Notes under the pieces: generated by a model | What the model was told of the DNA's origin: nothing | The model's input: the letters and a program-made list of their open reading frames with translations, nothing else | The model's database searches: none | Assembly: GCA_032622095.1 (NCBI GenBank) | Contig: CP136061.1 | Coordinates: 90,016,983 to 90,080,982 of the forward strand | Reading direction: 5' to 3' | DNA: 64,000 bases | Source: Siphonodentalium dalli | Taxonomy: Eukaryota > Mollusca > Scaphopoda > Gadilida > Siphonodentaliidae | Shown here: positions 10,760 to 55,800 of the stretch, piece by piece | Layout: each line of letters starts with the position of its first letter | How positions within the stretch are numbered: the first letter of the stretch is position 1 | Translations under genes and position numbers: made by a program

Positions 10760-11013
10760 CAAGCCTTGAAATAGTGAGCCTGTCATTTGCAAAATGAGGT
10801 CCCCAGAGGGTGAACTTAGTGATGCTACCCCGCATAGTGGGCTAGCATCACCAAATTCACCCTCTGGGGACCTCATTCTTCTTAGGCCTTAACAGAATGA
10901 GGTTCCCAGAGGGTGAATTTGGTGATGCTAGCCCGCTATGCGGGATAGCATCACTAAATTCACCCTTTGGGAACCTCATTCTGCAAATGACAGGCTCACT
11001 ATTTCAAGGCTTG
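10760..11013. mobile_element. Family D hAT MITE with 8-bp target duplication
   Basis: Perfect 23-base inverted ends starting CAAGCCTTGAAATAGTGAGC. The flanking 8 bases ACTATCGG are duplicated at 10752-10759 and 11014-11021. An 8-base duplication with a CA-starting end fits the hAT superfamily. Two head-to-tail palindromes of the GAATGAGGTCCCCAGAG type lie inside. This copy defines the ends of family D. Confidence 0.9.
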
Positions 11014-12217: not shown

Positions 12218-14375
12218 CTAAAAAATAAAAATAAAGTATTAAAATATGAACAAGAAATATAGTCTGATGAGATGTGCATATAGAATATGTAGCTAATGTC
12301 ATCGCTTAGTCAGATGCACGTTTTGCCAGAATTTCCTGGTATTTAAAAATGTATTTTCTCAAAATTTCTTTGTGAAATTTGGTACAAGCAATTATTGTGA
12401 CACAATATTTAAGAACCATCAACCAATTGGATATTATAACCTCATTAACTTTGACTTTTATGGCATGAAAAATATTTAATGTTCAACCTCTCAAATGTAT
12501 TAAAATCCATTGTTTTTGTTGTCTCTTAATAATTGCTCAGATTCTAAAATAATGATGATATAATAAACTCAAGATTTTTTGCAAGATAGATCCAGAGAAA
12601 TTCTTTGTAGAAAATCTCTTGCCATTTTTGGCTGGATTTATGCAAAATGTGCGTCTCCCCCTTAAACTGTTTTCATCTATTGGGCGAAGCTCTGCCGATA
12701 CCAAATTTGTCTAAAATTGCAAAGTATTCTTCAACTTCCTTCTTTCAATTTGAATATTTTAATAAGGAGAATATGGGAAATATCATGATCATCAAATATT
12801 AGGGAATAAGTCACAATGACTTCTACCCCTTGTAAATAATATTACAACAGTTATTATACAGTATTATAAATCTAAACATTTGTATATAATGTTTCTTTTC
12901 AGCGATCGAATTGATATCTAACACCACAATGCTCGTTATCGAAAAGTTCCTTGAATTCTTTCAGAGATTTGGCCTCATCGACATGTTCAGGCAATGTATA
13001 AGAGAATGCACTGGCTTACACAGTCAAGGTAAATATATAAATGTATTCTCTTATATGTGCAAGGCTCCCTATGGGAGACTCACATATATAAGAGAGAATG
13101 CATTTGGCACAGGCTTTTCAAAAAATTTCATGAAGACCCCATCATGGAAGGGTTAATGCAGGGGGATTGTCACCATACCTTCCCTATTTCTGTAGAATTC
13201 TGTATTTTATCAACAAGCAGTTCAGACAGTTTCTGCAGCTGGCCGTCTATATCTTCATCCAGCGTTTCCATCTTATCCACCAGTTCAGCGGTACACACGA
13301 TAATCGGAACAGAATGTTTCCATATTGCTCGGGAATCATTCATTGAGATAGAAGTCAAAATAGCTCTAAGTGAATGTCTCATAGTTTTCTCCTCGAGTTC
13401 GTTGAGTTTCTTGCGACATTTTATATTTTTATTAAGTGCACGTATCTTCATACAGCTCTGTAGGAAATCTTCATTCCTCTTGATGGATTCTTTCATTCTT
13501 AATGGATGTTGAGGGGTTTCTCCAGAAGATGGAGGAGTTGGATAAATCTGTTCTGATGCAGATAGGGAATCTGAAGCTGTGAATATAAAGGTAATAGATA
13601 ACATATCAAAGATGGTGTATCTCTTCCCTTAACTTTCTGGCGCTATTAAGAAATAACTTTTCTCCAATTATTTTCTGTGAATTAGGACAGAATTTTGTAG
13701 AACATTACAGCATATTTGATAAAAAAAACTTTTATGTGAAATAGGTGGAACACCAGATGTTTCTCTTGTGTGTTTTGTTTTGTATTAGTTGAAACTTTAA
13801 GGCATCTTTAAGTAGGCTATTTTATTCTAAACCTATGATCCAGCAGGGGCACCAAAGCAACTGCCCCTCCACCAGGGGCACCAAAGCAACTGCCCCTCCA
13901 CCACAGGGGCACCAAAGCAACTGCCCCTCCACCACAGGGGGGGGGGGCATAAAATGCTCTTTCATTCTTCAAATAACAGCAAAATATATTTCTCAATGTT
14001 GAATCAATTCTCTTGTTAGTCACTTTATAATTCCAATCTTCATGTATGGAGGAAATAAAGATGTAATAATAATAAATTTAATAAACATTAATTCCTACAA
14101 ATCTGAAATTATGGTTGACTATGATATAGATCTATCAATAATTTACCACTGTGGTGTTTGAATGAGCTTGAATCCTCCGATGTGTCTAACTCTTTCAGCA
14201 TCATTTGTTGCTGTAGATGAAGCACCTCAGTCTGCAGACTGTCACATTTAGCTTTCCATTGTGACTGTGACATTCTGTACTTGTTGTATAAACTCTCAGC
14301 GTATACTCTACCCGTCATCCCTTCGGGCTTCGATCTGATCACAGCCAGCGCCACTGCAACTTTTATTCTGTTCAT
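11831..14375 (-). CDS. MEI4: MEI4-like meiosis protein, three exons
   Basis: Exons 14375-14147, 13576-13179 and 12217-11831 join in phase to 338 codons (337 residues plus stop), close to the ~390 residues of vertebrate MEI4. MEI4 works with REC114 and IHO1 on meiotic chromosome axes to promote SPO11 double-strand breaks. The N-terminal VAVALAVIRSKPEG, followed by a spaced W and a heptad-like LQTEVLHLQQQ, matches the conserved start of MEI4 as I remember it. The C-terminal DQFPLFSHSVWRI matches a conserved end motif. The middle is charged and helical with no enzyme motif, as expected. The start at 14373-14375 is the first ATG of the frame; an in-frame TAG lies 12 codons upstream, though a TAG acceptor there could also join a 5' exon. 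A family B MITE ends close to the exon 2 donor. Confidence 0.8.
12218..12984. other. Intron of the MEI4-like gene
   Basis: A+T-rich. A diverged relative of the 4104-4245 element can be traced near 12286-12320 and 12650-12700 ('CTTAAACTG', 'CTATTGGGCGAAGCTCTGCCGA'). Nothing else. Confidence 0.45.
12985..13156. mobile_element. Family B MITE in the MEI4-like intron
   Basis: Contains the diverged core palindrome (ATGTATAAGAGAATGCACTGGC and ATTCTCTTATATGTGC with inverse) and ends 'CATCATGGAAGGGTTAA' at 13156, 23 bases from the exon 2 boundary on the downstream side of its donor. Confidence 0.7.
13179..13576 (-). CDS. MEI4: MEI4-like gene, exon 2
   Basis: Minus-strand acceptor TATATTCACAG before 13576 and donor GTATGG after 13179. 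398 bases: two to complete a Ser/Ala codon, then 132 codons. The protein opens with a Ser/Pro-rich linker, then a Lys/Glu-rich helical stretch (LNKNIKCRKKLNELEEK) and KLSELLVDKIQN. Confidence 0.78.
13617..14104. other. Intron of the MEI4-like gene with a 32-35 bp short tandem
   Basis: 13850-13942 holds three copies of 'CAGGGGCACCAAAGCAACTGCCCCTCCACCA', each a small palindrome, ending in a G-run. 13617-13700 resembles 14443-14530 and 25060-25210, a dispersed repeat with 'TATCTCTTCCCT' and 'AATTATTTTCT'. Confidence 0.6.
14147..14375 (-). CDS. MEI4: MEI4-like gene, exon 1
   Basis: ATG at 14373-14375 begins MNRIKVAVALAVIRSKPEG; 76 codons plus one base end at the donor GTAAAT following 14147. It carries the motif most characteristic of the family. 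Confidence 0.8.
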
Positions 14376-14629
14376 GACTGTTTCTCGCTGTGATTTGAAA
14401 GTCGATTCCTATGATAGAGACCTGCAATATAATTAGAAGACGGTGTATCTCTTCCCTGAAGTTTCTGTACTGATTCAGAGACATAAAAGAATAATTTTGA
14501 GTCCAAGAGACCAGGCATTAGGAAATAATTTGGTTCCATATGCTGGGACAGAAATTGATGCTAATGTATTTTTAGAATGTTACACTGAGCAGCTCTCCTG
14601 TGTTTGTTTTTCAATTGAAAGTCTATATG

Positions 14630-26044: not shown

Positions 26045-26575
26045 AGAAATGCTCATACTAGAAATAACCATACTGAAAAAATTCTATCCCATATTGAAGA
26101 AAAAATCTTCATGTTACAAATTTTTATTATTTAATAGAGAGGTTTCATATTACAAAGTTCTATTATATATATTGGAGAGATTTTCCTATTTCAAAATTCT
26201 ATTACATATTAGAGAAATATTTATTTTACAAAATTCTATGATATATTAGAGAAATTTTCATATTACAAATTTCTATTATTTATTAAGAGATTTTCATATT
26301 CCCAAAATTTATTTTATATTTCAAAGTTTTCATATTTCAAAGTTTTATTATATATTGGAGAGATTTTCATATTTCAAAATTCTATTACATATTAGAAAAA
26401 TATTTATTTTACAAAATTCTATTACATATTAGAGAAATTTTCATATTACAAATTTCTATTATTTATTAGAGATTTTCATATTCCAAAAAATTATTTTATA
26501 TTTCAAAGTTTTCATATTTCAAAATTTTATTATATATTGGAGAGAATTTCATACTTCAAAATTCCATTTAAGAAA
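26045..26575 (+). repeat. A+T-rich ~34-bp tandem array, block 1
   Basis: Degenerate units of 'ATTTTCATATTTCAAAATTC' plus 'TATTATATATTAGAGAG'. A ~185-base higher-order repeat is visible (26120-26310 against 26310-26550). The same unit family resumes at 27350. Reading frames are artefacts. Confidence 0.8.
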
Positions 26576-27345
26576 TGGATGTTTTTGTTGTTGCTTTCCA
26601 TGGAGTATGGATGCAAGTTTGTCTGGCATTCTGTGTGGAACGAGAAAGCGTTCCCCACATAAAAATGTCAGACCAACTTGCATACATACTCCATGGAAAG
26701 CAACAAAATCAACATCCAGTACTTATATTTACACTCAACCGGGTCAACATCCAGCACTTATATTGACACTCAACCGAGTCAACATCCAGTACTTATATTT
26801 ACACTGAACCGAGTCAACATCCAGTACTTATATTTACACTCAACCGGGTCAACATCCAGTACTTATATTTACACTCAACCGGGTCAACATCCAGTACTTA
26901 TATTTACACTCAACCGAGTCAACATCCATTACTTATATTTACACTCAACCGAGTCAACATCCATTACTTATATTTACACTCAACCGAGTCAACATCCATT
27001 ACTTATATTTACACTCAACCGAGTCAACATCCATTACTTATATTTACACTCAACCGAGTCAACATCCATTACTTATATTTACACTCAACCGAGTCAACAT
27101 CCATTACTTATATTTACACTCAACCGAGTCAACCCGCAGATTAAAATCGCATTTAGCGCAAGCTTCCAATGTTATTCCCATACCTGTAGCTGGTTGCAAG
27201 TTAAATCAACACAATATGGAAGCAAGTATGTGCATAGACTAAAACCTTCATCTATGGTATGGTCAGCGTGCGACGTCACGTGACGTAATTTCGACCAAAC
27301 AACGTCCTGCATTCATGTTCCACAACGCGAATGCATGTGTGAGTG
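26575..27345 (+). repeat. Dispersed repeat with an internal 35-bp array (about 12 units)
   Basis: The flanks 26575-26725 and 27135-27345 match 45592-45925, where the same sequence is present with a single short 'CATCCATTACTTAGTTACACTC' segment. Here that segment is a 35-base unit (ACTTATATTTACACTCAACC plus GAGTCAACATCCATT) repeated about 12 times at 26720-27135. Because 35 is not a multiple of 3, the 201-codon frame cycles through all frames of the unit: an array artefact, not a gene. Inverted 'CATACTCCATGGAAAG' / 'CTTTCCATGGAGTATG' lies at the left. Confidence 0.85.
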
Positions 27346-28760
27346 TAAATATTCCATATTAGAGCTATTTTCATGTTACAAAGCTCTATTATATTTTATA
27401 AAGATTCATATTGCAAAAGTTTTCATATTTCAAAGTTTTATTATATATTGGCGAGATTTTCATATTTCAAAATTCTATTATATATTTGAGAAATATTTAT
27501 TTTACAAAACTCTATCATATATTAGAGACATTTTCATATTAGACATTTCATATTAGAAAATTTTATTATTTATTAGATTATTCTATATTTATTACAGAGA
27601 TTTTCATATTCCAAAATTATAATATCTATTAGAGAGATTTTCATATAACAAAATTCTATATTTATTATACATTTTTTCATATTACAATTACTATTATTTA
27701 TTAGATATATTTACATATTACAGAAATCTTTATTTATTCGAGACATTTCCATATTAAAAAATTCTATTATTTATTAGAAATTTTCATATTAGAAAATTCG
27801 ATATTTATTAGAGATCTTCATATTAGAAATTTCTATATTTATTAGAGAGAATTTCATATTACAAAATTCTATATTTATTAGAGATTTTCATATAACAAAA
27901 TTCTATATTTATTAGAGATTTTCATATTACAAAATTCTATAATTTATTAGAGAGATTTTCATATTACAAAATTCTATTTTTATTAGAGAGATTTTCATAT
28001 TACAAAAATCTTTAATTTATTCGAGACATTTTCATATTACAAATATCTATTATTTATTGGAGATTTTCATATTACAAAATTCTATTATTTATTATGAGAT
28101 TTACATATTACAAAATTCTATATTTATTAGCGAGATTTTCATATTACAAAATTCTATCATATATTAGAGACATTTTCATATTACAAAATTCTATTATTTA
28201 TCAGAGATTTTCATATTACAAAATTCTATTATTTATCCAAGATTTTCATATTACACTATTCTATTATTTATTGGAGATTTTCATATTACAAAATTATATT
28301 ATTTATTATGAGATTTACATATTACAAAATTCTATATTTATTAGCGAGATTTTCATATTACAAAATTCTATCATATATTAGAGACATTTTCATATTACAA
28401 AATTCTATTATTTATCAGAGATTTTCATATTACAAAATTCTATTATTTATCCGAGATTTTCATATTACACTATTCTATTATTTATTAGAGATTTTCATAT
28501 TACAAAATTCTATTATTTATTTGAAAAGAGTTTTTAGTATTTTACAAAATTCAAACTGCAAATATTCTATACTATATTAGAAAAATCTTCATATTTAAAA
28601 TGTCTTTATATATGAAGGTTTCATGCTTCAAAATTCCATTATATATTAAACAATTCTATAACTATTATAGAATAGAGCAAGGTTCATACTACAATTTTAG
28701 AATTTAATTTTGTAAAAGTTTCATATTACACAAAATTCATACAACTTTAGAGAGATCTTC
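27345..28760 (+). repeat. A+T-rich ~34-bp tandem array, block 2
   Basis: About 40 units around 'TTTTCATATTACAAAATTCT' plus 'ATTATTTATTAGAGA'. Two near-identical ~214-base higher-order blocks start at 28094 and 28308. Units degrade towards both edges. Confidence 0.85.
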
Positions 28761-28789
28761 AAATTTCAAAATTCTATTGAGATATATTT

Positions 28790-29440
28790 GTTCTTAAAAG
28801 CATGTCTGATATTTCTTCTTGTTATTAGTGAATCTGTGATATTTTTCATGTTATAAATGAATCTGTTATATTTGTCCTTGTTATAAGTGAATCTGTGATA
28901 TTTTTCCTTGTTAAAAGTGAATCTGTGATATTTTTCCTTGTTAAAAGTGAATCTGTGATATTTCTTCTTCTTATAAGTGAATCTGTGATATTTTCCTTGT
29001 TATAAGTGAATCTGTGATATTTTCCTTGTTATAAGCGAATCTGTGATATTGTTTCTTGTTAAAAGTAAATCTGTGATATTTGTCCTTGTTATAAGTGAAT
29101 GTGATATTGTTTCTTGTTATAAGTGAATCTGTGATATTTTCCTTGTTATAAGCAAATCTGTGATATTTTCCTTGTTATAAGCAAATCTGTGATATTTTCC
29201 TTGTTATAAGTGAATCTGTGATATTTTTTCTTGTTATAAGCAAATCTGTGATATTTGTCCTTGTTATAAGCGAATCTGTGATATTTTTCCTTGTTATAAG
29301 TGAATCTGTGATATTTTTTCTTGTTATAAGCAAATCTGTGATATTGATCTTGAAAGTAAGTCTGTGATATTTTCCTTGTTATAAGTGAATCTGGGATATT
29401 TTTCTCATTACAAGCATGTCTGTGATATTATGGCTGTGAT
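28790..29440 (+). repeat. ~31-bp tandem array
   Basis: About 20 units of 'GTGAATCTGTGATATTTTTC' plus 'CTTGTTATAA', with alternation between GTGAATC, GCAAATC and GCGAATC versions. Confidence 0.88.
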
Positions 29441-29559
29441 TTTTGTTCTTCATATGATGCCTTCTCTATTTTTCTTCATTTATGTTTAATTTGAAAATAA
29501 ATTTCATCTGGCGATAACAATTCTTCTTGATCCTTCCCAATGGAAGGGTTGGGACATTA

Positions 29560-30780
29560 ACCCTTTCTATACTAAAGCATCATTGATGAGTCGTTATCCC
29601 ATAGGAATTGTACAGATAATAAGTTCAACCCTTTCTATACTAAAGCATCATTGATGAGTAGTTATCCCATAGGAATTGTACAGATAATAAGTTTAACCAT
29701 TTCTATACTAAAGCATCATTGATGAGTAGTTATCCCATACGAATTGTACAGATAATAAGTTTAACCCTTTCAATATTAAAGCATCATTAATGAGTAGTTA
29801 TCCAATATGAAATGTTCAGATAATAAGTTTAACCCTTTCTATATTACAGCATCATTAATGAGTAGTTATCCCATAGGAAATGTTCATATACTAAGTTTAA
29901 CCCTCTCTATACTAAAGCATCATTGATGAGTAGTTATCCCATAGGAATTGTACAGATAATAATTTTTAGCCCTTTATATACTAAAGCATCATTGATGAGT
30001 AGTTATCCCATAGGGAATGTTCAGATAACAAGTCTAACCCTTTCTATACTGAAGTATCATTGATTAGTTATCCCATAGGAAATGTTCAAATAATAAGTTA
30101 ACCCTTTCTATACTAAAGCATCATTAGTGAGTAGTTATCCCATAGGGAATGTTCAGATAATAAGTCTAACCCTTTCTATACTGAAGTATCATTGATTAGT
30201 TATCCCATAGGAAATGTTCAAATAATAAGTTAACCCTTTCTATACTAAAGCATCATTGATGAGTAGTTATCCCATATGAAATGTTCAGATAATAAGTTTA
30301 ACCCTTTCTATATTAAAGCATCATTAATGAGTAGTTATCCCATAGGAAATGTTCATATAATAAGTTTAACCCTCTCTATACTAAAGCATCATTGATGAGT
30401 AGTTATCCCATAGGAATTGTACAGATAATAATAAACCCTTTATATACTAAAGCATCATTGATGAGTAATTATCCCATAGGAAATGTTCAAATAATAAGTT
30501 AACCCTTTCTATACTAAAGCATCATTGATGAGTCGTTATCCCATAGGAAATGTTCAGATAATAAGTCTAACCCTTTCTATACTAAAGTATCATTGATGAG
30601 TAGTTATCCCATAGGAATTGTACAGATAATAAGTTTAACTCTTTCTATACTAAAGCATCATTGATGAGTAGTTATCCCATAGGAATTGTACAGATAATAA
30701 GTTTAACCCTTTCTATACTAAAGCATCATTGATGAGTAGTTATCCCATAGGAAATGTTCAGATAATAAGTCTAACCATTT
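29560..30780 (+). repeat. ~67-bp tandem array
   Basis: About 18 units with 'ACCCTTTCTATACTAAAGCA', 'TCATTGATGAGTAGTTATCC' and 'CATAGGAATTGTACAGATAA'. Two alternative versions of the last part (GAATTGTACAG and GAAATGTTCAG) are interleaved, and a multi-unit block recurs around 29970-30120 and 30120-30230. The unit start resembles the 'TTAACCCTTT' ends of the MITEs here. Confidence 0.88.
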
Positions 30781-31166
30781 TTACATAAGATAATACATTG
30801 GCTTAACAATATTTAGAATGCACTGGCACAGGATCTCTAATGCTACATCATCACAGCTCCCATCATTAAAGGTTTAACTTTAACCCTTTCCTGACTGCAG
30901 CATCCTGAAATTTTGCAGAAACCCTGTGCCAATACATTCTCTTGCATATATAAGTCAAGGTTGGGGCGATTACATGCCAATGTAATCGATTACATGATTA
31001 CGATTAAGAGTATACATTGGCCTAACAATAATTACCTTGATCTTGTAAACCAGTGCACTCACTTATATATGCGAGGATCACTATGGGAGACTCACATATA
31101 TAAGAGAATGCATGGCACAGGACCTCTAATGCTGCACCAGCTCAACTCCCGTCATTAAAGGATTAA
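30780..31166. mobile_element. Family B MITE copies
   Basis: A degraded piece at 30780-30875 and a fuller copy 30879-31166 (TTAACCCTTTCCTGACTGCA start, 'CTCCCGTCATTAAAGGATTAA' end) with core palindrome at about 31040-31112. Confidence 0.7.
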
Positions 31167-31279
31167 GGAATCAGCACATGACTTTTTATGGGGGTTGAAT
31201 GTCTAACTTCTACACACCCTGGGAAAAAGTGACAAAACACGAGATCGATTAAAAAACCATTCACTCAATATAAATATAA

Positions 31280-31960
31280 ATAACATGAGGTGTGTACCAG
31301 TGTGTGTGTACACATAATGTCATTTTGATGTCAGCATTATAATCAACATGAGGCATGTGTACCAGTTAGTGTGTACATATATAAATTTAATGTCAGCATT
31401 ATAATCAACATGAGGCCTGTGTACCAGTTAGTGTGTGCATATATAAATTTAATGTCAGCATTATAATCAACATGAGGCCTGTGTACCAGTTAGTGTGTAC
31501 ATATGTAAATGTAATGTCAGCATTATAATCAACATGAGGCCTGTGTACCAGTTAGTGTGTACATATGTAAATTTAATGTCAGCATTATAATCAACATGAG
31601 GCCTGTGTACCAGTTAGTGTGTACATATGTAAATGTAATGTCAGCATTATGATCAACATGAGGCCTGTGTACCAGTTAGTGTGTACATATGTAAATTTAA
31701 TGTCAGCATTATGATCAACATGAGGCCTGTGTACCAGTTAGTGTGTACATATGTAAATGTAATGTCAGCATTATAATCAACATGAGGCCTGTGTACCAGT
31801 TAGTGTGTACATATGTAAATGTAATGTCAGCATTATAATCAACATGAGGCCTGTGTACCAGTTAGTGTGTACATATGTAAATGTAATGTCAGCATTATAT
31901 TCAACATGATGCCTGTGTACCAGTTAGTGTGTACATATGTAAATGTAATGTCAGCATAAA
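31280..31960 (+). repeat. ~62-bp tandem array
   Basis: About 11 units with 'AATGTCAGCATTATAATCAA', 'CATGAGGCCTGTGTACCAGT' and 'TAGTGTGTACATATGTAAAT'. Very homogeneous from 31490 on. Confidence 0.9.
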
Positions 31961-40588: not shown

Positions 40589-40843
40589 TTATACAATCTC
40601 GGACTCGTTCCGAGCATTATCTGCACCATTAACTTTACGGTGCGGCTTTCTGTTCTTGACATTTTTGTTGCCGGAGTTTCTCGGCCACAATGCTGTGATA
40701 TCTTTTTCATGCATTCGCTGTAGTTCTGTGTGGAGTATTGCTTCGTTGGTTATATACGCCTCACGGTGAGATTCGGACTTAATTTTGGCCGGCATGTCTG
40801 GGATCAACCACGATATCAGACTGGTTATAACAACCACGACATT
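40589..40843 (-). CDS. Anoctamin, last coding exon
   Basis: Minus-strand acceptor TTATTTACAG precedes 40843; 84 codons and a stop. It begins [18 protein letters not shown], the last transmembrane helix and conserved IPD motif, then a basic cytosolic tail ending NARNESEIV. The tail has [11 protein letters not shown] and a WP, reminiscent of ANO3/4 C-termini. Confidence 0.92.
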   Translation of the reverse strand, partial: NVVVVITSLISWLIPDMPAKIKSESHREAYITNEAILHTELQRMHEKDITALWPRNSGNKNVKNRKPHRKVNGADNARNESEIV

Positions 40844-43800
40844 CTGTAAATAAAATATTTCCACATTTATATATATTATTTTGACTGAAATCAAGAACAA
40901 GGCATTTGGACAGAAAATTAAACAGGCACATGTATAAATATATTTTCACCTACATGCAACATAGGCTCCTGCGAATCACAAATATTTCGTCGAATCAAAC
41001 CTCAAATCGAAATGGGGGGGGGGAGATTTCACATCGAATCGAACCTTGAATCGAATCACCATAATCAAAAGTTCATCGACATTAACATTTTGTTTTCGTC
41101 ACTGGCTATTATATACAAAACATGACGAGTAATTTATCAATTCATCATGGCCCTACACTCTAATAACATAATTATGGAAAATTGAATTGCACTGCGAATA
41201 TTATCAAGAACAAGATTTTGGGGAATTAATGTTTATCATGCAGCATTAATCTTACTTAGGTGCAAGGGCGATAATACAATGTGTTCGACGTGATGGTCCA
41301 GTGCAAAGGGAAGTAATTCAATTTCCAGCTATGACGGTAATTGTTGGAAATCATTGAATAATCATTGCAATTGCTACTGTGAGTGTCATAACTGTGGGAA
41401 ATCTGACACACTGACCTAAGAGTCTAGTAATCCAGATTTGTGTTTTCCCTAATGATTGATACATAATTATACGGTTATCGCATTCTCTCTTCTGTTAAAC
41501 GAGACAAAGCAAAAGTTTTAAAGACTTTTTCGATTATATATTAAGACAAAGTTGCACGAGTCACTTGGTGCGGGAGGGTTCGATAATTTATTAAATCTTT
41601 GCGACCATTTTGAATTGAATGTTTTGTGTGATTTCACTTCGAATCGAATCTGGAATGTTTGCAGGAGCCTAATGCAACATTAGAAACAAACAGTATGTAA
41701 GGTTATTTTAGGGTATCATTTAGGAGGGGGGTATGGTTATAAATAGAATTATAGAGAAAATGGGGTGACAACAATAAGGCATCAGAACACAAAACTATCA
41801 CAAGTATTTTTGAATTTCTTAATTAAACTTATGCTTAGGGCATAAAAAATAAGTTGGACAATTGCCAGAATGTAAATTCTTACCTCAAACAAAACAACGA
41901 AAGGAAATCAAGCTGCTAAATTCTTACCTCAAACACGACAACGAATGCAAATCAAGCCGCTAGATTCTTACCTCAAACACAACAACGAAAGCAAATCGAG
42001 CCGCTAGCACGTGCCAGTAGTGAGAAGAGCTTTTATATCTAACTCCCTCTTCATCCCACGGAGGGTTCCGGAACTCCTTGTACCTAAGCGAAAGAAGAAT
42101 AATAAAAAATTTCTAAATAAGTAAAATGTATATCTCCTATAAGTATCTTGCCCACTAAACTATATTCCTATTCTCAGAAGAAAGGGTTAACAACCCAAGG
42201 TTGAAAACTGTACGAAAATTCTATGGTACGTTTATTCATGGTCAATCAGAATTTTTCCTATATATGATGTATTATCCTTCATGGACCACGTGATCTCCAT
42301 TTTGATATTTTGCCCGGCAGGCCAGGTCATCATTCTTCCTTTCTACTGCGCAGAGCTAAGTTTACTTTTTATTTAAAACAGCATTATTTCCATTTGATTA
42401 TTATTAATTTTATTAGTGAAGTTGACACAAAAATTCACCCTCTGGGAACCTCATTCTGCAAATGAAAAACCCACTATTTGCAGAGTTGAATACTAACCTG
42501 CATATATCAGTTTCGTTAGCTCCAGGAAACGTTGGTGGTTCTTTGAAGTCACTTGTGTTGAAATATGATAGACTGAATTCAGTATACCCATCAAGGCTAC
42601 CATCTGGACTGACTCGTGATGTGTAAACGAAACGGGGTATAAAATCCGAGGTCAGGGAGATAATGAAGGCCTGGAAAGCAGTCAGAAAATTTATATCAAA
42701 GACAACCAATGGAATAATTGTTATTAATCTTTCATGATGGGCGCTGCGCTGGTGCAGCATTAACCCTTTACCCAACAGAAGGGCCCTGTGCCAATGCATT
42801 CTCTTATAGGTCGCCTCGCATATATAAGAGAATGCATTGGCACAGGGCATAACTGTAACCATCACAATGTGGTCAATGAGCCGGTTCCAATGATATCCAT
42901 ATTTGTATGGTTTTATTGAGACAGACCCAAGATAATTTAGGCTGTTGCAGCTTTATTTGGCCGTTTTTGGCCGGTTTGTTGGGTAAAGGGTTAAAGATCC
43001 AGGGACCAGCCTAGAGGTTTCAAATAGGGAGAAGTCACTTCTCCTTGTTTAGTTACGAGGGAGAAGTGAACTGTAATCAGGGAGAAGTAACAATGGCTGA
43101 AGTTAAATTTACACACCAACATCACCCTTCTATGATTTATCGCCGATAGAAGCGTCCCGATCCGAGTAGTAAATATTTACAATTTAGCGTAGTTCAGACA
43201 ATGTTTTCTATGGAGTGGTACGGTCGATTTGCTTGAAATTTTCGGTGATGTTAGTAGAATACTATATTCCTCCAGTTGGCACAGCACCTGATTACTAACT
43301 TATCAGTTGCACGCACGCAAACAAGTACATAATATGTCTTTAAATATGCTGCTGGGACATATACGTACTGGTATATGAGAGAGAAGTCACTTCTCCATGG
43401 GTCAAAAATAGGGAGAAGTGGCACATTCTGGGGAGAAGATGTCACCCTCTAGGCTGGTCCCTGTGAAGATCCTGTGCCAGTGCATTCTCCCATAGGGAAA
43501 CTCGCATATATGAGAATGCCCTGGCACAAGATCCTAATGCTGCACCAGTGTGGCTCCCGTCATGAAAGAGTAAATGTTACTGGCAGGAGATACGGAAAGC
43601 AAATCAATTTGAAGGGTTCTTGAGAATTATGCTCAGTATTTGACAAATTAAAATGTGAAAATAATTCATGATATTGTTTCTTCAAAATTCAGCTTATATA
43701 GGATTTAAACCATTGTAAAATCTCCATTTTCACATAGGGAGATAATGTTAACAAGATCATCATTAAGGCATGACAATATACGCCTGTGGTATTTCCAACA

Positions 43801-46800
43801 AAGGGCCATAACTCTGTTGACATTTGGCAGGCAAAACCAAAATTTGAACTTGACATGTATTTTGGGCTAGTAAACTCACACACCAAATTTCATTCCATTC
43901 AAACTTGCTAAAGTTATCATCCGGAAATGAAAATTGAGTGCAAATTCCAACAAAATGGGCGATAACTCTGGTGAAAATGGGCAGATGGGACCCGAGTTCA
44001 CACTTGACCTGTATTTTGTGCTAGTAAAACCACATAACAAATCTATCCAAAGTTATCATCCGGAAACCAAAATCGAACGGACGGATGGACAGACCAATAA
44101 CATTACATATGTCCCGTTTATTAAAAAAGGGAGTATAAAAAAACTGAGAATACATAAGAAATTTCTAGGATTTGTGCAAATTCTTTAACCCTTTCAGTGC
44201 CAAGTCTAATTTTTGTATCAACCCATATTTTCCTTGATCATTTTTCAAATTTATTGATTATAATAATGTGATACATTGATGGAAAGAGCAAAAATTAGAC
44301 AAAAATTAGACTTGGCACTGAAAGGGTTAAAGGGGAGAGGAAGCAAACAAAGAGTAGGGCTGCAACGATTCAGATCTTTACAATGCGATACAAACTGCAA
44401 TTTTTTGGCAACTGATGGCTGTGAAAACTAGATGAACCACTTAATCATGTTTAGTATATGTATATTCTAATCAGTGTTCACCTCAGCATATTCATTGAAG
44501 TAAGTTACAAGACCTAACTAAAATGACCAAGACACATGGACAGGTATTAGAGGTAGACTATAACAGCTAATATAGTCCCAGATCTGCCCAGAAGGGGAGT
44601 TTTGAGTGGAAAAGTTTGATCTCTGACTTGATAACTCTGCATACATGAATTATTTTTGCATCACATCGCACCCTCCCAATACAATGCATTGCATCATGAA
44701 CTTTAAAACGCGGAATGATGATGAATTATGGCAGCACTAGAAAAGAGACAAAATATTTTTAGAGATCCCAGTTTTCATGGATATCTCAAATTTCAAACAT
44801 CTCAAATACTTTAACCCTTTCATGACGGGAGCTGAGCTGGTGCAGTGCCAGTGCATTCTCTTATATATGCGAGTCTCCCATAGGGAGCCTCACACTCACA
44901 TATATAAGAGAAATCACTGGCTTACAAGATCAAGGTAAATATTGTTAAGCCAATGTATTCTCTTATATGTGCGAGGCTCCCTACGCATATATAAGAGAAT
45001 GCATTGGCACAGGGTTTTGGCAAAATTTCATGAAGCTCCAGTCATGGAAGGGTTAACCTGACCTAAGAGGATGCGGTAATGCATAGAAAATGGATGCTAT
45101 TTACTCAGAAAGTTCCCTATTGTCAGATTACATCAATGAGGATTGATTTATTAATTTTTTATAAGGTGAACACTGGTGTGAAAGAGTTAAGCCTAAATCT
45201 GTCTAAACTAAATACTCATTGACGACTAGTCTCCTTCTGCACTCATATTAAAAATACTCTGTCTGTCGTTTGCTTTTACAACATGAAAATCCCTCCAAAT
45301 GAATGATATACTTTTATAAGTGAATGGGAGAAACCATTTTAAACAAGATGGCTGCTGGCGGTCATGTTTTTTTCCCGAATGAACCCAAAATGACTCGTTC
45401 CCATCTACATGTCAAATGACAGCTATGACAAATTTCATAATGATCCGACCAAAGGTACGACCTGTAGCCCGTGCTAAAGGAAATTGTTGACGCATTACAC
45501 ACGCACACACACACGCACACACACACAGACGACGGACAAAAAGCCAAGGCAATAGCTCAAACTTTACAAAGTAAAGTTGAGCTAAAAATGGATGTTGATT
45601 TGCTTGCGTTTTATAGAGTATGGATGACATTTTGTGTGGAACACGAAAGCGTTACTCACATAACAATTTCAGACCAACTTGCATCCATACTCTATGGAAC
45701 GCAACAAAATTAACATCCATTACTTAGTTACACTCAGCAGAGTCAACTGGAAGATTAAAAGAACATTTAGCGGGCGTTTTCAACGTTATTCTCACAGCAA
45801 GTTGTGTCTACACAATATGGAAGCAAGTAGGGGACATCGTGCGACATCACGTGACATAATTTCGACCAACCAACATCCTGCATTCATGTTCCGCAGCGCG
45901 AATGGATGTGTGATTGTAAATATATAGTATAGAAAGGGTTAACTTACATTTGATATCACTGCTATTCTTGATATTGCATAGAGAACTTGATGCCAAATAC
46001 CTGAAACACATGTCATATAATGTAACAAGACAGTCAATGACTTTTGAGTCACTCACCAGACTGTAAAGACTGAGACGATTGGGACTCTGAAGACCATAAC
46101 AGTCAGTAATTGTCAAAATCACTTAAAACAAGTAGTTGTAAACAGCTTCGGGTTCTCCATAGGGCAGGGATGTCCAGCTTTAAATTTCCAACTACACACC
46201 CCTGACACCCTCTTTTAGAAACGGACATATAAAAATAGATGCTACTTCTGAACCTCGACCTCCAAGTGACAAATGGAAGATTCACCCCTAGCAAGTGATT
46301 TCACTTATTGGTTATATAAGTGGAGCCACACAGATTGGATGAAACAGATTCTTATTGATTATATAAGTGGAGCCACACAGATTGGATGAAACAGATTCTT
46401 ATTGGTTATATAAGTGGAGCCACACAGATAGGATGAAACAGATTATATTGATTATATAAGTGGAGCCACACAGATAGGATGAAACAGATTCTAATGATTA
46501 TATAAGTGGAGCCACACAGATTGGATGAAACAGATTCTTACCTATTTCTACAGCTCTAACAGCAGTTGGACGTCGACTGTTGGTTATCATCATGAAAGCA
46601 TCACTTCTAATCTCAATTATGTTGTTGATTAATGCGAAGATTGGGCCGAGTGGGAAAGCTGCCACGAAAATGGTTAGAAAACCAAACTGAAGTACTGAAA
46701 TGAAAATTATTATTATTTAATATTATATCAAATCAGTTGAATGATTAGTATATTAATATGATACTTATGTACTATGTAATTCGAAAACTTACTCATTTAA

Positions 46801-49800
46801 TTTATTATTATATCAAATCAATTGAATGATTAACATATTAGTTTTTGTACCTATTCATCAGTCTGCTATATATATGTCTACTCATAAGCCTTATTATCAA
46901 ATGGTATGAAGAAGACTTACCCATCTCCATATAATGGTAGAATAATGACATATCATTGATGGGAGTATGAAGAGTTACCCATCTCCATATAATGGTAGAA
47001 TAATGACATATCGTTGATGGAGTATGAAGACTTACCCATCTCCATATACTGGTAGAATAATGACATATCGTTGATGGGAGCCAGATTATAGTCCTTCTCC
47101 CATGGAGTCCTGGCCAGTTTCTCTTCTTCACTCATGTCCGTGCATTTACGTTTAATGAAACGGATCAGCTTCCTAGAATCAAAATTGACAATTTAAAGCC
47201 ACATGGCGGTTTGCGCTCCAAAATACACCTAATATTTGCTTTTGAATTTTTCCCGGTATCAAAATATGTCGATAATTTCCATAAATACTTGAACTACCTT
47301 TCTGCAGGCATTATATGTCCCAGAAAGACGCAATTGGTGTCATTCAAAATACAACTTTGAACACAGTGTTTGGGTCCCAAACAAACAACAGCCATGTGCA
47401 CAGAACAGAAAAGAGCTTTTCATGTTAGTGTATTCCTGATATGATAGAAATAAAGAGTGTTTGTATCATTTCTGTGTGAAAAATTTAAATCAGCTGGAAT
47501 ATGGCTCTGATGATGGAAAGTATTTTTCAGAGCATATGAAGATGGAATATCAATATTTCATGTATTTGTCAGCCTATCTTATACATTCCAACTTATGTAG
47601 ACAAAATTTCGGGCAATCATCACCAAATTCACCCAGTGTATGGGATAGCATCACTAAATTCACCCTCTGGGGACTTCATTCTGCAAATGACAGACACACT
47701 ATTTGCAGGCTTTCGATATTTTACGAAACTGGTTTGGCTTTTTATTAAGATTATAGTCTATATAGACAGAACACGCATCTCAATCAAGAATCATTTATCG
47801 ATTGAGTTGAGACCGACACAAGGATATATTTAACGAAAAACAGAGCTTGAGTGAAATGTGACTATGCGACAACTGCAACAAATACGATATATAAATGATT
47901 CTAGATTATGATGCAAATTGTGTTCTGTATTTATTCTACACTCTTTTATTGAATAAGTTTAATCCATGGCTACCATTGATAGTATAATTACCTTTATTGT
48001 GATTTAAGTCTGATGAAAAACTGGTAATTTTCTGTGCATCACCCGGAGCGAATCGTTAAGACGTCATCGCTCTTGACAATGTCAACACACAGTAGTGGCG
48101 GCTTGTATATATGCAAATATGTGCATACATCTCGCCCATGGGTGTGGAATAAATTGACAGAACACAACGCGAATCTTAATCGAGAGCTTTTATCGAATGA
48201 GTTGCGGATGTAAATGTAACTATGCGCCGCCCGCAACGAGTTCGATAAAAGATTAGAGATTATGATGCAAGTTGTGTTCTGTATTTATTCTACATCATTA
48301 TGTCAGATAAGCTCAAACCATGACTAGCACTTTCGTTGATATTATAGCTACCTTTATTGTGATATAAGTCTGATGAATGATCAGTAATGATTGGAGCCTC
48401 ACCCGAAGCAGATCGTTGACGTAATATACGGCATCTTTCTTGGCGACAACGTCAACAAGAATACTTCTGGCTTGTATTCCAATAGAGGTATACAATAATA
48501 TGTATTCAATGGCTGGAATGCCGTTAAATACATGTGCCTCACGTCAATGTGTGTGGAATTCATTCAAAATAACATATTTGGAACAAGGATTGCCACACGA
48601 AAGACACTATCTTGTATAATATATTTGTATGTTGTTGTTGTACCTGGAGGTTTGGAACTGGGTTTGTTGCTGGGGCAGCAGGAGGTGCCAGATGGATATA
48701 GAAATTGATGAGACATCTTCTGGGTTCACACTCCTTATGTTAGGGATGGGATGGGAGGGACATTATAATGTACTCACGGAACAGCGATCTCCATGAAGTT
48801 ATTTTGGATATACTGTTTGCCAATCATGATTATGGCCAGCTGGATACACAACTCGATGAGACATCCTCCAGGTTCACACTCCTCCTGTCTCGCACCGAAG
48901 ATCGTGTTATATTTACCTGGACGTCCAGTAAATCTGCAAATATACTCAGATAGTAAGTCAACAATGATAATTTCTAGTGGACTCCGGCGCGGCTTGATGG
49001 CAATGATGGTGTTATCATTATTGGAGAATTGAGAATACAAAGATTTTTAATAACGTTTACTGGGGTTTATCATTGGTTTATTTAAGAAATGAATGGAGTT
49101 TGAGGGTGTAACAATGAAGGGTATAACACTGTGGTTATATTGTGCGAACCATGATACTTAATGTGATCCAATGGCCACAGCGACATACCCCGAAGAAGGA
49201 AAGGCTGTAGCGTAACAACCATGCACGCCAACCTTCACTGGCTACCTATCAAAGATCGGATACAATTCAAAATAGCAACATTTGGTTTCCGTCGGATGTT
49301 TGTCTCTGAATCCCTTCCCGAATATATTAACAGTCTGATATATCCATACACTCCCTGGCAAACACTTCGTTCTGGTGAATCGTCCCTTCTCTGCCCTCAA
49401 GGTGCAAATCTTATGACCGTCGGCGACAGAGCTTTCTCTGTGGCTTATCCCGACATTTGGAACTCTCTACCAAATGAAATGCGACAATCTTGCTTGCTAA
49501 CCGATTTTCGATCTGCTTTAAAAACTCACATATTCCGACGACGCTACCCCGACACAAAGAAAACTAACAAAATCGGATTATATATAATTCCACATATCTA
49601 TTGATTATTTTCCAAGTGCATTTCTTGTGTATTTATATAATGTGTAAAGCGCTTAGGGCCCCTTGCGGGGGATAGGTACTATATAAATATAAATATTATT
49701 ATTATTATTATTATACCCATTAATAAAACAATCAAACTAAAATCGTTTCTTACAGTTACAAACTCAGCCCATTTTCTCTTCTGAAATCTATCTGGAGTTT

Positions 49801-52800
49801 GGATATTATACAAGCACAATCTCTTTAAAAAGCCGACGAAAATCCTTTATCGGATGTACGTCTCTCGAACTCTCTATTAAAATTAGGTTCTGTATTCAAG
49901 GGATTCCCCACATTTCATTGGAGAGTGGCAGAGACTGCACACGATTTCATTGGTTTATGGCATAGCAGATCACGTCAGAGATCAGAGGTCAATGACGTGT
50001 TGGTAATTTTCCCACGCATGGTCAAACTCGACTATTATTGGTAAACTGAATACAGGCGATATATCCATAATTCATTTTACTCATCGCAATATAGGAGACA
50101 TCATCTTCAAGTTTTTTCATCACTCAACGATATTCATGACTGATAATGATTATTCTTTTGCATCTAGTTGTATTTATAACTATTTCTAAATACGAAGATT
50201 CTCACAAACATTTACAATGCCAGGAATGCATTTGGGAACTTCAATCTGAGTCTGTCTTCCACAGCAGATAAGGCCATGCAGAATGAGGTCCCCAGAGGGT
50301 GAATTTGGTGATGCTAGCCCTCTATGTGGGATATCGTCACTAAATTCACCCTCTGGGGACCTCATTCTCATTCAGGCCTGGAACATTGGCAATTTGAAGA
50401 ACAGTTACAAAAGCTTCCACTTACCTCCCTTTGAAGAAAGCTATGTAGGCGATAGATGAGTAGTAGTTAACAAACTGGAGAGCGAATAGTTTGAGAGTAA
50501 TGCTGTCATCATATTCATGCTGAGTTCTCAATGCCTCCATATCTGTCAGCCAGAAAGCTAATCTACCATACACCTACAAAAAGGGTCATTATAATTAACA
50601 AACTGGAGAGCGAATAGTTTGAGAGTAATGCTGTCATCATATTTATGCTGAGTTCTCAATGCCTCCATATCTGTCAGCCAGAAAGCTAATCTACCATACA
50701 CCTACAAAAAGGGTCATTATAATTAACAAACTGGAGAGCGAATAGTTTGAGAGTAATGCTGTCATCGTATTCATGCTGAGTTCTCAATGCCTCCATATCT
50801 GTTAGCCAGAAAGCTAATCTACCATACACCTACAAAGAGAGAATAGTTTGAGAGTAATGCTGTCATCGTATTCATGCTGAGTTCTTAACGCCTCAATATC
50901 TGTTAGCCAGAAAGCTAACCTACCATACACCTACAAAGGAACAGTTTGAGAGTAATGCCGTCATCGTATTCATGCTGAGTTCTTAACGCCTCCATATCTG
51001 TTAGCCAGAAAGCTAATCTACCATACACCTACAAAGAGGGTTATTAATAATAAAGGATCATACACCTACAAACTGGAGAGCGAATAGTTTGAGAGTAATG
51101 CTGTCATCGTATTCATGCTGAGTTCTCAATGCCTCCATATCTGTCAGCCAGAAAGCTAACCTACCATACACCTACAAAGAGGGTTATTAAAAATAAAGGA
51201 TCATACACCTCCATATCTGTTAGCCAGAAAGCTAACCTACCATACACCTACAAAGAGAGCGAACAGTTTGAGAGTAATGCTGTCATCGTATTCATGCTGA
51301 GTTCTCAATGCCTCCATATCTGTTAGCCAGAAAGCTAATCTACCATACACCTACAAAGAGGGTTATTAATAATAAAGGATCATACACCTACAAACTGGAG
51401 AGCGAATAGTTTGAGAGTAATGCTGTCATCGTATTCATGCTGAGTTCTCAATGCCTCCATATCTGTCAGCCAGAAAGCTAACCTACCATACACCTACAAA
51501 GAGGGTTATTAAAAATAAAGGATCATACACCTACAAATAGGGACAGAAAGCTAACCTACCATACACCTACAAAAAGGGTTATTAAAAATAATTTATCATA
51601 TACAGTCCACTCCAGTAAATTGCATATCGCTTAGCTGCATAATTCAGATAATTGCATAAAATGTGCATGCACGAAACCATTTTTTTTATAAAAGCATTAA
51701 TTTTTATCCATTTATTTGCATAACGGTCACACTGTATTCCATTTTTATGCATACGAAAATCGCCAACATTTTGCTCAGAAAGGGTAAAAAGTCACCTAAT
51801 GCCAAATGGTGCCATTGTGTCTGACATTTGCAAAATGAGGTCCCCAGAATTTAGTGACGCTAGCCCACAAGGCATGCTGGCGTCACCAAATTCACCCTCC
51901 GGGAACCTCATTCTGCTAAGGTGTAAGCAGAATGAGGTCCCCAGAGGGTGAATTTAGTGACGCTAACCCACAAGGCATGCTGGCGTCAACAAATTCACCC
52001 TCTGGGAACCTCATTCTTCTTAGGCCACAACTGCTATTTGAGATGCTTCCCAAAAGATGAGGCCTAAGCACAATGAGGTCCCAGAGGTGAATTTGGTGAT
52101 GCTAGCTCGCTGTGTGGGGTAGCATCACTAAATTCACCTTCTGGGGACCTCATTCTGCAAATGTCAGACACACTATTTCCAGATTTAATTATGCAACTCA
52201 TGACATATACTAGAAAATAAAAATATTAAAAAATCAACCAATATATGCATAAAACCATCAGAATTGAAAAGGCATTAACTTCAACCTTCATCAGCCAACT
52301 ATATTTAGTACGGCTTGTTTGTTCGTATTTCATTATTTTAATGAATACTAAAGAATACAATTTACTCAACACTACTCCTTTATGGTCAGATGAAACAATG
52401 CGCTTCATATTTGAAAAATATTTGTTCATAATGTCATGTAATATTGATTAATCTTGGCACCTATTTCCCGCATTAAATCTGAAAAGATCAAGATCAAATA
52501 ATATAAATCTAAGTTTACTTACAATATTAAGCACCATAATAATTGCAAGATTAATTAAAGCTGAGGTTGCCGTGGTAACAAGACTAGCATTTTTGTATAT
52601 AATATCACTCTCCATCACTTGTAAGGCAGCCAATGTTGATACTCTGTAAGCAATGACGCCCATCACAGACACTATAGCAAGGGCAGCCTGAAACAGAAGG
52701 ATATGTCATAAGACCCATCACAGACACTATAGCAAGGGCAGCCTGAAACAGAAGGATATGTCATAAGACCCATCAAAAATGCTATAGCAAGGGTGACCTG

Positions 52801-55800
52801 AAATAAATTGATATATAATAATGTAGGTGAGAGCAAAAATTAAAAAATAATGTTTCATAAATTTTGAACTCTTGCTCAGATAAACAAGGATCAATGGAGA
52901 GTTATTATGATGAGAATGGTTTTAACCGAGTCAAAAGGCAAAATTTCATTTGTTGGAACTAATAAGCAATGATAGGTTAACCCTTCCATACATGGAGCTT
53001 TCAGAAATTTTGCGAAAACCCTGTGCCAATGCATTCACTTATATATCCAAGTCTCCCATAAGGAGCCTCGCATATATAAGAGTATACATTGGCCTAACAC
53101 TATTTACCTTGATCTTGTCAGCCAGTGTATTCTCTTATATATGCGAGGCTCCCTATGGGAGACTCGCATATATAAGAGAATGCATTGGAATGGGATCTTT
53201 AATGCTGCACCAGCGCAGCTCCCGTCATGAAAGGGTTAAGATATCTTGTGATAAATCAGGAAAATATATCTGACTCAACTGCCATTTATGGCCAATTTCT
53301 AAGTCTGAATCGTGCCGATATATAGTGTATCTTAAAGTTATGTTGTACATTAGCTAGTCCAAGCCTAGAAATAGTATGCCTGACATTTGCAAAATGAGGT
53401 CCCCAGAGAGTTAATTTAGTGATGCTACCCCAAACAGCAGGCTGGCATCACCAAATTCACCCTCTGGGGACCTCATTCTGCTTAGGCCTCATCTTCTGGG
53501 AAGTATCTATAGTCTCAAACTAACATTGTATTTAGTTACTTTTTCCCTTCTGTTCAATTTCTATATCCCCTAATTTGCAGAAGATAAAATGCGTAATCGA
53601 GGTGACTAATGGGTGAACATCACCAACTTCAACTGGGGAAATTCAATCTATTCCTAGATCTCCCATAGCAGTTGAGGCCTGAGCAGAATGAAATTCCCAG
53701 AAGGAGAATTTGGTGATGCTAGCAAGCTGTGCGAGAGAGCATCACTAAATTCATCCTTTGGGGACCTCATTCTGCAATTGCCAGACACACTATTTCAAGG
53801 CTTGTCTTCTAAGTTAGTTTGATGGAACTTACCATAAAGAACATCAGAGACCAGGAGAAAAGGAAAATAGGAAATCTCTTCCTCCAGAATGGTATGTGTG
53901 GCTCCCGGAGCTGAAGATAAATAAAAGTATCAATGATACTGTAGCTCAATTGGAGAGGGGATAATGTCATACATTACAGTCAATGGAGCGATTAGGAATG
54001 CAGAAAGTGTAAATGTTTGATTGATACCTAGATCACCTGAAGAGCCATATGAAGTTTGGGATCAATTGGATGAAAATATTGGCTGTAGGGCATGCCAAAG
54101 TATTTAGTGATGCAAAGAATAAAATCCAAGATGGCCGCTAGTTTTTAAATGAAATTTGGGAAAATTTGATGACCGATGGAGGCCATTTTTAATCAAAAAA
54201 ATTTGGGGAAAATTTCATCGGATAAGAGATGTGACCTGTAGGGTGTGCTATAGGAAATTGTTGACCCAAGGCAATAGCTCAAACTTGACTTTGTCAAGTT
54301 GATCAAATAAAAACTCACCCCAGTAACTGGGTTATCTCGGAACTCCGTACAACTCTGCAGCCGGGCTAAGTACTCCGGTCGCGGAGGTTGCTGCAAAAGA
54401 ATAACAGTTTTATGTTAGCTTCAATTCAAAACAATATCAAATTTTTTGCGGGAAATAAAAATTGTATCAGCGTGTTTCACAAAGGATGAACATTTGAAAC
54501 ATGGACATTTCTTGAGATTGAGTATTTATCACTTTCATGATGGGAGTAGCGCTGGTGCAGCATTTAAAATCCTGTGCCAGTACACTCTCATATATATGTG
54601 AGGCTCCTTATGGGAGACTCGCATATATAAGAGAATGCATTGGCACAGGGTTTTCGCAAAATTTCAGGAAGCTCCAGTCATGAAATGGGTTAAATTCAGT
54701 TGATATGTTTACCTGACTTCACATTTATATTCTAAGATTCCAGAAGTGCAAAAAACGTAATGATTATGATATACCAGATACGAATAAAGGACGTCAACGT
54801 AATTGACCAATCAGATCATTTGTTCAATTTAGGTTAGATACATTTTTGTATTCTAAAGAACCTTGTGAGCAGTGTTGTGAGTGGTAAAATTTGAATTCAT
54901 TGGATACCATAAAGGTCCAAATAAATAAAAATTCCATATTCTCTCATCACTCTAATGATCTCCTAAAAACCCTCGTCAAACATTTTTTTGAATATTTTCT
55001 GTTTAAAGGTACTCAATCCAATTTGATGGTCCCCATACCATCAGATTCCAACAACATCAACATTTTTTTAAATGCTGCTCCAGTTTTCAGAATATATTAA
55101 TATATTAATTGCCCAAAAATAATGCAAACTACAGTCAACTATAGTATAAAATTGCCCAAAACCTGTTATTTATGAACATTTTGTTCAACAAAATTTTGCC
55201 AGTTTGTCAAATATCTGACACAACTAGAGGTGTGACTGTCCCAATGGGACCAAGGATACCCCCAATGTTTTAAAAATACTAAGATGTTTCACATGTCAGT
55301 AAACATTTAGTTAAAATAATAAAATTTCAGTTCCCATTGCAGGTGCACAACCCTAACCTAATTTTAAACCTATTGACTGAGAAATTTAGGAATAAAAGCT
55401 CTGACAAAATTATGCATGTTGCGAAAATGTTCTAAGTCGAAAAAGGGGGATAACTCCACCCAAACATGTCGGACAGATGTCATAATCGCAGGTGCACAGG
55501 TTCCCATGGTACTAAATATCTGTGCCAAGTTTAAAAACAATTTACCTAAAAATGTAGAAACAAGACAGTCAATGACTGTGGGGTCGCTCACCAGACTGCA
55601 AAGACTGATAAGACTGGGACTCTGGAGACCAAAACAGTCTGCACTTTTTATAATCACTTTAAAAGAAGTAGATTTAAACAGGATATGTGGCTAGAGAGAC
55701 TTTAAGTATGTAGATTGGTGAAAATCAACCTTGAAATTGCCAACTGTACACTACTGATCACCCCCCCCCCCCAAACACAATACATGTATGTCAGACCAAT

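What the first reader, a model, noticed from the sequence alone, without database searches (positions are those of the whole stretch)
40589..54390. Tandem arrays start at exon edges again and again in one anoctamin gene
Five separate exons of this gene have one edge copied in tandem into the adjoining intron: the acceptor side of 52687 (55-bp steps) and 50573 (about 128-bp steps), and the donor side of 47036 (57/58 bp), 41972 (44 bp) and 48778 (one decayed copy of internal exon sequence). A sixth exon (46542) is abutted at its donor by a 46-bp intronic array. Unit lengths and sequences are unrelated, so these are independent events. Random intronic minisatellites should not pick splice junctions this often. 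Possible explanations are replication slippage anchored at splice-site polypyrimidine tracts, repair linked to R-loops at splice sites, or selection for decoy splice sites. Other genes in the window show the same tendency.
Basis: partly seen in the sequence, partly recalled or inferred. Interest (0 to 1): 0.85.

Follow-up and report, generated by a model that had tools for sequence, protein, structure and literature searches.

The report
Exon tails copied in tandem into introns
In this large animal genome the last few dozen bases of an exon, together with the splice signal that follows, are often copied head-to-tail into the next intron; this was seen at about one in thirteen sampled exon ends, more than a simple model of random duplication predicts, and why is not known.

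Summary
In the anoctamin gene (minus strand, 11 exons, frame closes) five tandem arrays touch exon edges: four span them (52687, 50573, 47036, 41972), one abuts (46542); the decayed copy near 48778 is also there. Two array stretches searched genome-wide matched only here. I tested generality in 213 exons of kinesin, dynein, CCT and anoctamin-paralogue genes. By simple overlap exon edges are not enriched: 7.5% of donors lie in local duplications, against 10-15% of intron 100-450 nt beyond. But an array that grows from one duplicated unit can cover a donor only if that unit spans it. On that null donors are enriched: 15 of 198, 2.9-4.4 expected, P about 1e-5; second sample alone 4 of 55, P=0.016. 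Acceptors are not (2 of 202). Units are mostly exon (mean 70%) with a median 12 nt of intron. In 12 of 17 arrays use of the next donor would shift frame or meet a stop. Best reading: private minisatellites seeded preferentially in exon-tail/donor DNA and tolerated because spliced out. The cause of the donor bias is open; polypyrimidine slippage is not supported.

The parts
52659..52793 (-). 55-bp array spanning the acceptor of exon 52687-52523; unit = 29 nt of exon start + 26 nt ending in tttcag
   Evidence: TRF; sequence; exon bases 1-29 copied at 52742-52714 (100%) and 5-29 at 52793-52769 (84%)
50467..51591 (-). irregular array of the first 23-110 nt of exon 50573-50425 plus its acceptor; 13 TAG|GTGTATG sites, the exon's own included
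   Evidence: TRF rows; 13 sites and 9 further copies at 93-98% identity
48687..48735 (-). decayed copy of exon bases 51-99 downstream of donor 48778; the exon end and donor are not in the match
   Evidence: 84% identity, E 1.7e-11
46911..47080 (-). 57/58-bp array spanning donor 47036; unit = 45 nt exon tail + 12 nt intron with gtaagt
   Evidence: TRF; exon-tail copies at 95.6% and 97.6%; stretch matched once genome-wide
46304..46540 (-). 46/47-bp intronic array that starts at intron base +2 after donor 46542; the full GT is not in it
   Evidence: TRF; sequence
41873..42006 (-). 44-bp array spanning donor 41972; unit = 35 nt exon tail + 9 nt intron (gtaagaatc)
   Evidence: TRF; copies at 91.7% and 88.6%; stretch matched once genome-wide
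40589..54390 (-). anoctamin gene, the 3' eleven exons: 54390-54319, 53910-53833, 52687-52523, 50573-50425, 48933-48778, 47172-47036, 46694-46542, 46000-45948, 42670-42498, 42083-41972, 40843-40589
   Evidence: joined frame open to the stop; anoctamin-1 E 3.6e-131

Best explanation
These are locus-private minisatellites born by tandem duplication of a short stretch that includes a splice junction. At a donor the duplicated unit is mostly exon tail (12-72 nt, mean 70% of the unit) plus the 5' splice site and a few intron bases (median 12 nt); arrays hold about 2 to 18 copies. The spliceosome uses the exon-proximal donor, so the extra copies stay in the intron and the protein is unchanged; duplications lying wholly inside coding exons are presumably purged. 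On top of this tolerance there is a birth bias: in the sample, units spanning a donor are about five times as frequent as units of the same length starting elsewhere in the neighbouring 450 nt of intron. Shown: arrays, frames, locus-private units, donor excess on the unit-placement null, exon-rich units. Inferred: use of the proximal donor, purging inside exons, and that the excess reflects birth and not retention. The physical cause of the bias is unknown.
For: Donor-spanning arrays 15 of 198 against 2.9-4.4 expected, P about 1e-5, and 14 of 198 without hand-set donors; second sample alone 4 of 55, P=0.016; 17 arrays start in the 88.8 kb of intron beside the same donors. In all 15 the exonic overhang is shorter than the unit, which one search did not require, so each unit holds the junction once. 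h/U mean 0.70, KS against uniform P=0.004. Of the 32 arrays that classed as exon-derived or private intronic, 19 share sequence with an exon match of the same gene, though exon matches are 14.6% of the DNA (at least two of the 19, L086 and the 62-bp array of L098, only because the profile match ran into the intron; on the other side L037, classed intronic, overlaps an exon by 22 nt). Using the next donor shifts frame or meets a stop in 12 of 17 arrays. Donor arrays are not older than intronic ones (median TRF match 95% versus 90%, Mann-Whitney P=0.13), against longer retention. Paralogous loci L102, L165 and L166 share one array at 14.5, 14.5 and 11.5 copies: copy number changes after birth.
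Against: Simple overlap shows no excess at donors (15 of 282 edges touched against about 17 by coverage). The unit-placement null was worked out after the first sample had been seen, and the formal test was run once both samples were in hand. Dynein alone shows little (2 against 1.1-1.2) and anoctamin paralogues 1 against about 0.4. A sensitive exon-copy search finds mostly older, single copies on the acceptor side too (about 7 exons), so the donor/acceptor contrast is weaker for old copies. Intronic arrays are AT-richer than introns (G+C 0.32 versus 0.36), so G+C content does not explain an exon preference. No RNA data.
Confidence: 0.55

Rival explanations
1. No bias at all: this genome makes many minisatellites everywhere; those reaching an exon edge are just those that selection tolerates, and this gene is a lucky cluster.
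For: By coverage, donors (7.5%) and acceptor edges (2-5%) are less covered than deeper intron (10-15% beyond donors, 5-14% before acceptors) and about as much as or more than exon interior (2-5%). Acceptors fit the unit-placement null: 2 seen, 2.3-2.5 expected. In one search, 71 arrays cover 6.1% of 201 kb.
Against: At donors 14-15 spanning units against 2.9-4.4 expected, also in the second sample. Exon-facing ends pile up in the 75 nt before the donor (15) and are few in the next 75-nt bins (1, 5, 3, 4, 2, 2). 27 of 62 arrays have units found at other places in the sample or window, so private intronic births are rarer still.
Confidence: 0.25
2. Selection keeps extra 5' splice sites as decoys or back-ups, for example to recruit U1 snRNP near long introns.
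For: Donor columns are less variable among intronic copies than the rest of the unit: 4 of 108 versus 40 of 482, permutation P=0.033. GT kept in 56 of 61 copies by the first count, three of the five exceptions being L051, whose donor I had set wrongly.
Against: Older cases lack donors: the copy at L147, one of two copies at L163, and the copy near 48778. Array-bearing donors score no lower than others (P=0.66). Distal donor use would break the frame in 12 of 17.
Confidence: 0.1
3. Intron birth: the tandem duplication itself created the intron, as in the AG|GT duplication model.
For: Same raw event, a duplication spanning a splice motif (PMC2891723 and PMC2812944, passages read).
Against: The two window introns with donor arrays run about 200 and 1000 nt beyond the arrays, and a search of each window exon against 700 nt on either side found copies only beside the exon's own edge. 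The far ends of most sampled introns were not fetched; at L050, upstream of the next exon match, a second block of the L051 unit lies inside the intron.
Confidence: 0.03
4. Assembly or collapse artefact.
For: Not excluded by reads; none are available here.
Against: Unit lengths are locus-specific, copies differ in most arrays (TRF match 81-100%), and three paralogous loci carry the same array at 14.5, 14.5 and 11.5 copies.
Confidence: 0.03
5. A mobile element that inserts at donors.
For: Dispersed repeats are common in these introns: 27 of 62 arrays.
Against: Units are host exon tails, and two window stretches searched matched only themselves genome-wide.
Confidence: 0.02

Closest known systems
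Internal tandem repeats at exon-intron boundaries of human genes in segmental duplications (Genome Biol 2009, PMC2812944; abstract and passages seen)
   Same: Tandem repeats overlapping exon-intron boundaries change what is spliced; 27 intron modifications kept after manual inspection
   Different: There: recent human paralogues, repeats retained or turned into introns. Here: ordinary conserved genes, donor-sided excess, units mostly exon tail, extra copies left in the existing intron
Human introns from tandem arrays (Zhuo et al. 2007, PNAS; seen only as a citation in PMC2812944, look-up failed)
   Same: By its title, introns arising from tandem arrays
   Different: Concerns intron origin; content not checked here
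Intron gain by tandem duplication of AG/GY proto-splice sites in Drosophila (PMC2891723; passages seen)
   Same: Duplication of a segment holding a splice motif
   Different: New introns inside exons there; here existing introns gain copies
Ordinary intronic minisatellites (VNTRs; general knowledge)
   Same: Locus-private head-to-tail repeats with variable copy number
   Different: Here the unit preferentially contains the exon end and donor

Membership tests
Minisatellite / tandem repeat array | head-to-tail copies of a unit above about 10 bp | tested here: met
Minisatellite / tandem repeat array | copy number varies | tested here: met
   one case: paralogous loci with 14.5, 14.5 and 11.5 copies; alleles not testable
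Intron gain by tandem duplication | intron flanked by two copies of the duplicated segment, its length equal to the unit | tested here: not met
   for the two window introns with donor arrays only: far longer than the unit, exon copies only beside the exon's own edge; sampled introns were not fetched whole
Tandem alternative splice sites | both sites used in transcripts | not testable with these tools
   no RNA data
Tandem alternative splice sites | distance a multiple of three favoured | tested here: inconclusive
   8 of 17 units
Transposable element | same unit at many loci | tested here: not met
   five window units without match in 174 other loci; two stretches matched once genome-wide

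The most novel reading that the evidence does not exclude
The 5' splice site is itself a hotspot for the birth of tandem duplications in this lineage: a process tied to transcription or splicing at donors repeatedly duplicates the exon tail with the first dozen intron bases, so that roughly 8% of introns in conserved genes carry strings of spare 5' splice sites, possibly kept as decoys for some time.
Probability: 0.3. Interest if true: 0.85.

Novelty: new variant of a known kind. Interest (0 to 1): 0.6.

Why it matters
If confirmed with an annotation, it shows that minisatellite birth is not random with respect to gene structure, gives a steady supply of duplicated 5' splice sites on which alternative splicing could draw, and offers many natural experiments on how the spliceosome picks one of several near-identical donors. 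It also warns that overlap tests with shuffled intervals can hide such a bias when arrays grow away from the exon.

Tried and rejected
Overlap or coverage test: no excess at donors (first seen, 15 of 282 edges against about 17 by coverage). It is told here as evidence against; I think it the wrong null because an array grown from an intronic unit never covers the donor.

G+C-driven births: intronic arrays are AT-richer than introns. Weak donors: no difference. Donor motif as anchor anywhere: of 33 intronic arrays 1 holds GTRAGT (background 3% of windows) and 12 a loose donor-like motif (background 16%); the loose excess is confounded by an AT-rich dispersed family and is not used. Pattern CAGGTAAGT twice at 30-59 nt: 1925 matches against 610 for the reversed pattern, but the places listed (only the first hundred or so) fall in about ten loci, mostly satellite-like, so it is not used. 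A control for the exon-copy search (intronic segments) was not usable: 139 of 426 had hits, which I put down to intronic repeats, against 29 loci for 213 exons; taken at face value it also shows no excess of copies for exons.

Dropped before counts: 80 of 123 kinesin and 72 of 89 dynein matches were used, the best by E-value with near-identical loci left out; one strong dynein match (C3:198517559) was left out by oversight. 42 of 53 CCT matches (two single-exon genes and nine near-identical copies left out). 19 of 32 anoctamin matches (12 of the others belong to this gene). 85 myosin and 14 AMP-binding matches were searched and not used (many similar copies; matches in long single exons). The two paralogous loci L165 and L166 were fetched and kept out of counts. 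Arrays matching the 103-bp palindromic repeat were left out. L009 and L051 donors were set by hand (14 instead of 15 without this); L051 was set a base or two off. L028, counted as a hit, was a wrong donor prediction. L098's other exon has a 62-bp array ending 6 nt inside the acceptor that the later edge set did not count. L114, L147 and L163 look like further donor cases and are not counted.
Full report
What is there. The window lies in a 2.23-Gb genome of nine contigs of 190-301 Mb, evidently chromosomes. The gene is on the minus strand. Eleven exons from 54390 to 40589 join with consistent phases into one open frame of 500 codons, which matches anoctamin-1 at E 3.6e-131. That alignment fixes the exon edges. 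Against these edges, the arrays at 52659-52793 and 50467-51591 span acceptors, those at 46911-47080 and 41873-42006 span donors, and that at 46304-46540 starts at intron base +2. A decayed copy of exon bases 51-99 lies after donor 48778.

Independence. The five units do not resemble each other, nor anything in the 174 other loci. Two stretches were searched in the whole genome and matched once each, here. So they do not look like a mobile element.

Chance within the gene. With equal-length shuffled intervals, four or more spanning arrays have P=0.022; five or more spanning or abutting, P=0.0014; with random placement of the unit, four or more have P=0.0003. The gene was picked because it looked striking, so these need an outside test.

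Outside test. I used Pfam searches to find exons and cut 174 stretches of matches plus 600 nt on each side: 152 kinesin and dynein exons, then 61 CCT and anoctamin-paralogue exons, plus two paralogous loci kept out of the counts. Edges were predicted from the match ends and splice-site scores: 198 donors and 202 acceptors passed. Hand inspection shows the same thing as in the window, for example a 34-bp unit of exon tail plus donor repeated 18.5 times (L022), 64 bp x 5 (L041), 80 bp x 4 (L113), 30 bp x 14.5 (L102), 49 bp x 2.4 in an anoctamin paralogue (L157).

Is it enrichment? By simple coverage, no. Positions 3 nt before donors lie in a local duplication in 14 of 187 cases (7.5%), intron 100-450 nt beyond donors in 10-15%, exon interior in 2-5%; around acceptors 2-5%, with 5-14% in the intron before them. 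But a tandem array grows from one duplicated unit; an array can cover a donor only if that unit contained it. So the fairer comparison is the density of units per base. On that, donors have 15 spanning arrays (14 without two hand-set donors), with 17 arrays starting in 88.8 kb of adjoining intron; expectation 2.9 from intron density or 4.4 pooled; P about 1e-5. The first sample gives 10 against 2.2-3.1, the second 4 against 0.7-1.1 (P=0.016). Kinesin is strongest (8 against 1.1-1.9), dynein weak (2 against 1.1-1.2). Acceptors show 2 against 2.3-2.5. Three TRF thresholds gave the same picture. I reached this null after seeing the first sample, which is a weakness; its key idea (overhang shorter than unit) was noted before the second sample was fetched.

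Anatomy. In all 15 the overhang into the exon is shorter than the unit. Including the two window donors, the exon makes up on average 70% of the unit, which differs from uniform (P=0.004) and is compatible with a birth rate proportional to exon content (P=0.58); the intron part is 2-42 nt, median 12. Of 62 arrays, 27 have units found elsewhere in the sample or window, 13 are private and intronic, 19 share sequence with an exon match of the same gene, and 3 are mixed; exon matches are 14.6% of the DNA. The 19 include L086 and the 62-bp array of L098, whose profile match ran into the intron, and two pairs of rows with the same unit (L050/L051, L130); L037, classed intronic, overlaps an exon by 22 nt.

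Consequences for splicing. In 12 of 17 arrays the next donor would shift the frame or follow a stop; in 5 (L051, L102, L130, L144, 47036) it would stay open. Unit length is a multiple of three in 8 of 17, not clearly more than a third. So in most cases the first donor is probably the productive one; this is inferred. Copy donors are conserved to a degree that just passes a permutation test (P=0.033), but older copies at L147, L163 and 48778 lack donors. I take decoy selection as unproven and less likely.

Birth or retention? Donor arrays are not older than intronic ones (median match 95% versus 90%, P=0.13), so longer survival is not supported, and a higher birth rate is the simpler reading. 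G+C content and donor strength do not explain it. The donor-only excess speaks against polypyrimidine-tract slippage. R-loop or transcription-linked repair remains possible and untested.

Known background. Repeats at exon-intron boundaries that alter splicing are described in human segmental duplications (PMC2812944, passages), and tandem duplication as a source of introns in Drosophila (PMC2891723, passages). In seven full-text searches of the held library (one search was only about the species) I saw in the listings no genome-wide, donor-sided excess of exon-tail arrays; the library lacks most subscription papers, and the listings were capped. The species was not identified.

Noticed in passing
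L102 (C7:207978998-207980338), L165, L166: Three closely similar kinesin loci share one donor array at 14.5, 14.5 and 11.5 copies, showing copy-number change after duplication of the gene.
   Followed up: partly
L102, upstream intron: A 37-bp x 8.9 array in the upstream intron carries 26-27 nt of internal sequence of the next exon (about 92% alike), away from the splice site.
   Followed up: partly
L050 (C4:258496699-258498063): A second block (90 bp x 3.1) of the exon-tail unit of L051 lies further down the same intron.
   Followed up: partly
window 10793-10982; also L028, L036, L055, L071, L158, L164: A dispersed palindromic repeat with units of about 103 bp; each sampled copy matches 45-47 other sources of the sample.
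   Followed up: no
G000 C1:231.98-232.01 Mb: A long satellite with a 26-bp unit containing a perfect donor consensus CAGGTAAGT.
   Followed up: no
G000 C4:274.2-275.5 Mb: Many similar-scoring myosin head exons, suggesting a large myosin gene cluster; similar-scoring dynein loci at C3:24.99, C3:57.83 and C6:62.04 Mb.
   Followed up: no
window 11831-14408, minus strand: Exons of a Mei4 meiosis gene (Pfam PF13971).
   Followed up: no
window 26103-31957: A dense run of minisatellites with 30- to 68-bp units and up to 31 copies, gene context unknown.
   Followed up: no
L147, L163, L114: Three further donor-side copies found by eye, two of them with copies lacking the donor; not counted in the statistics.
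   Followed up: partly
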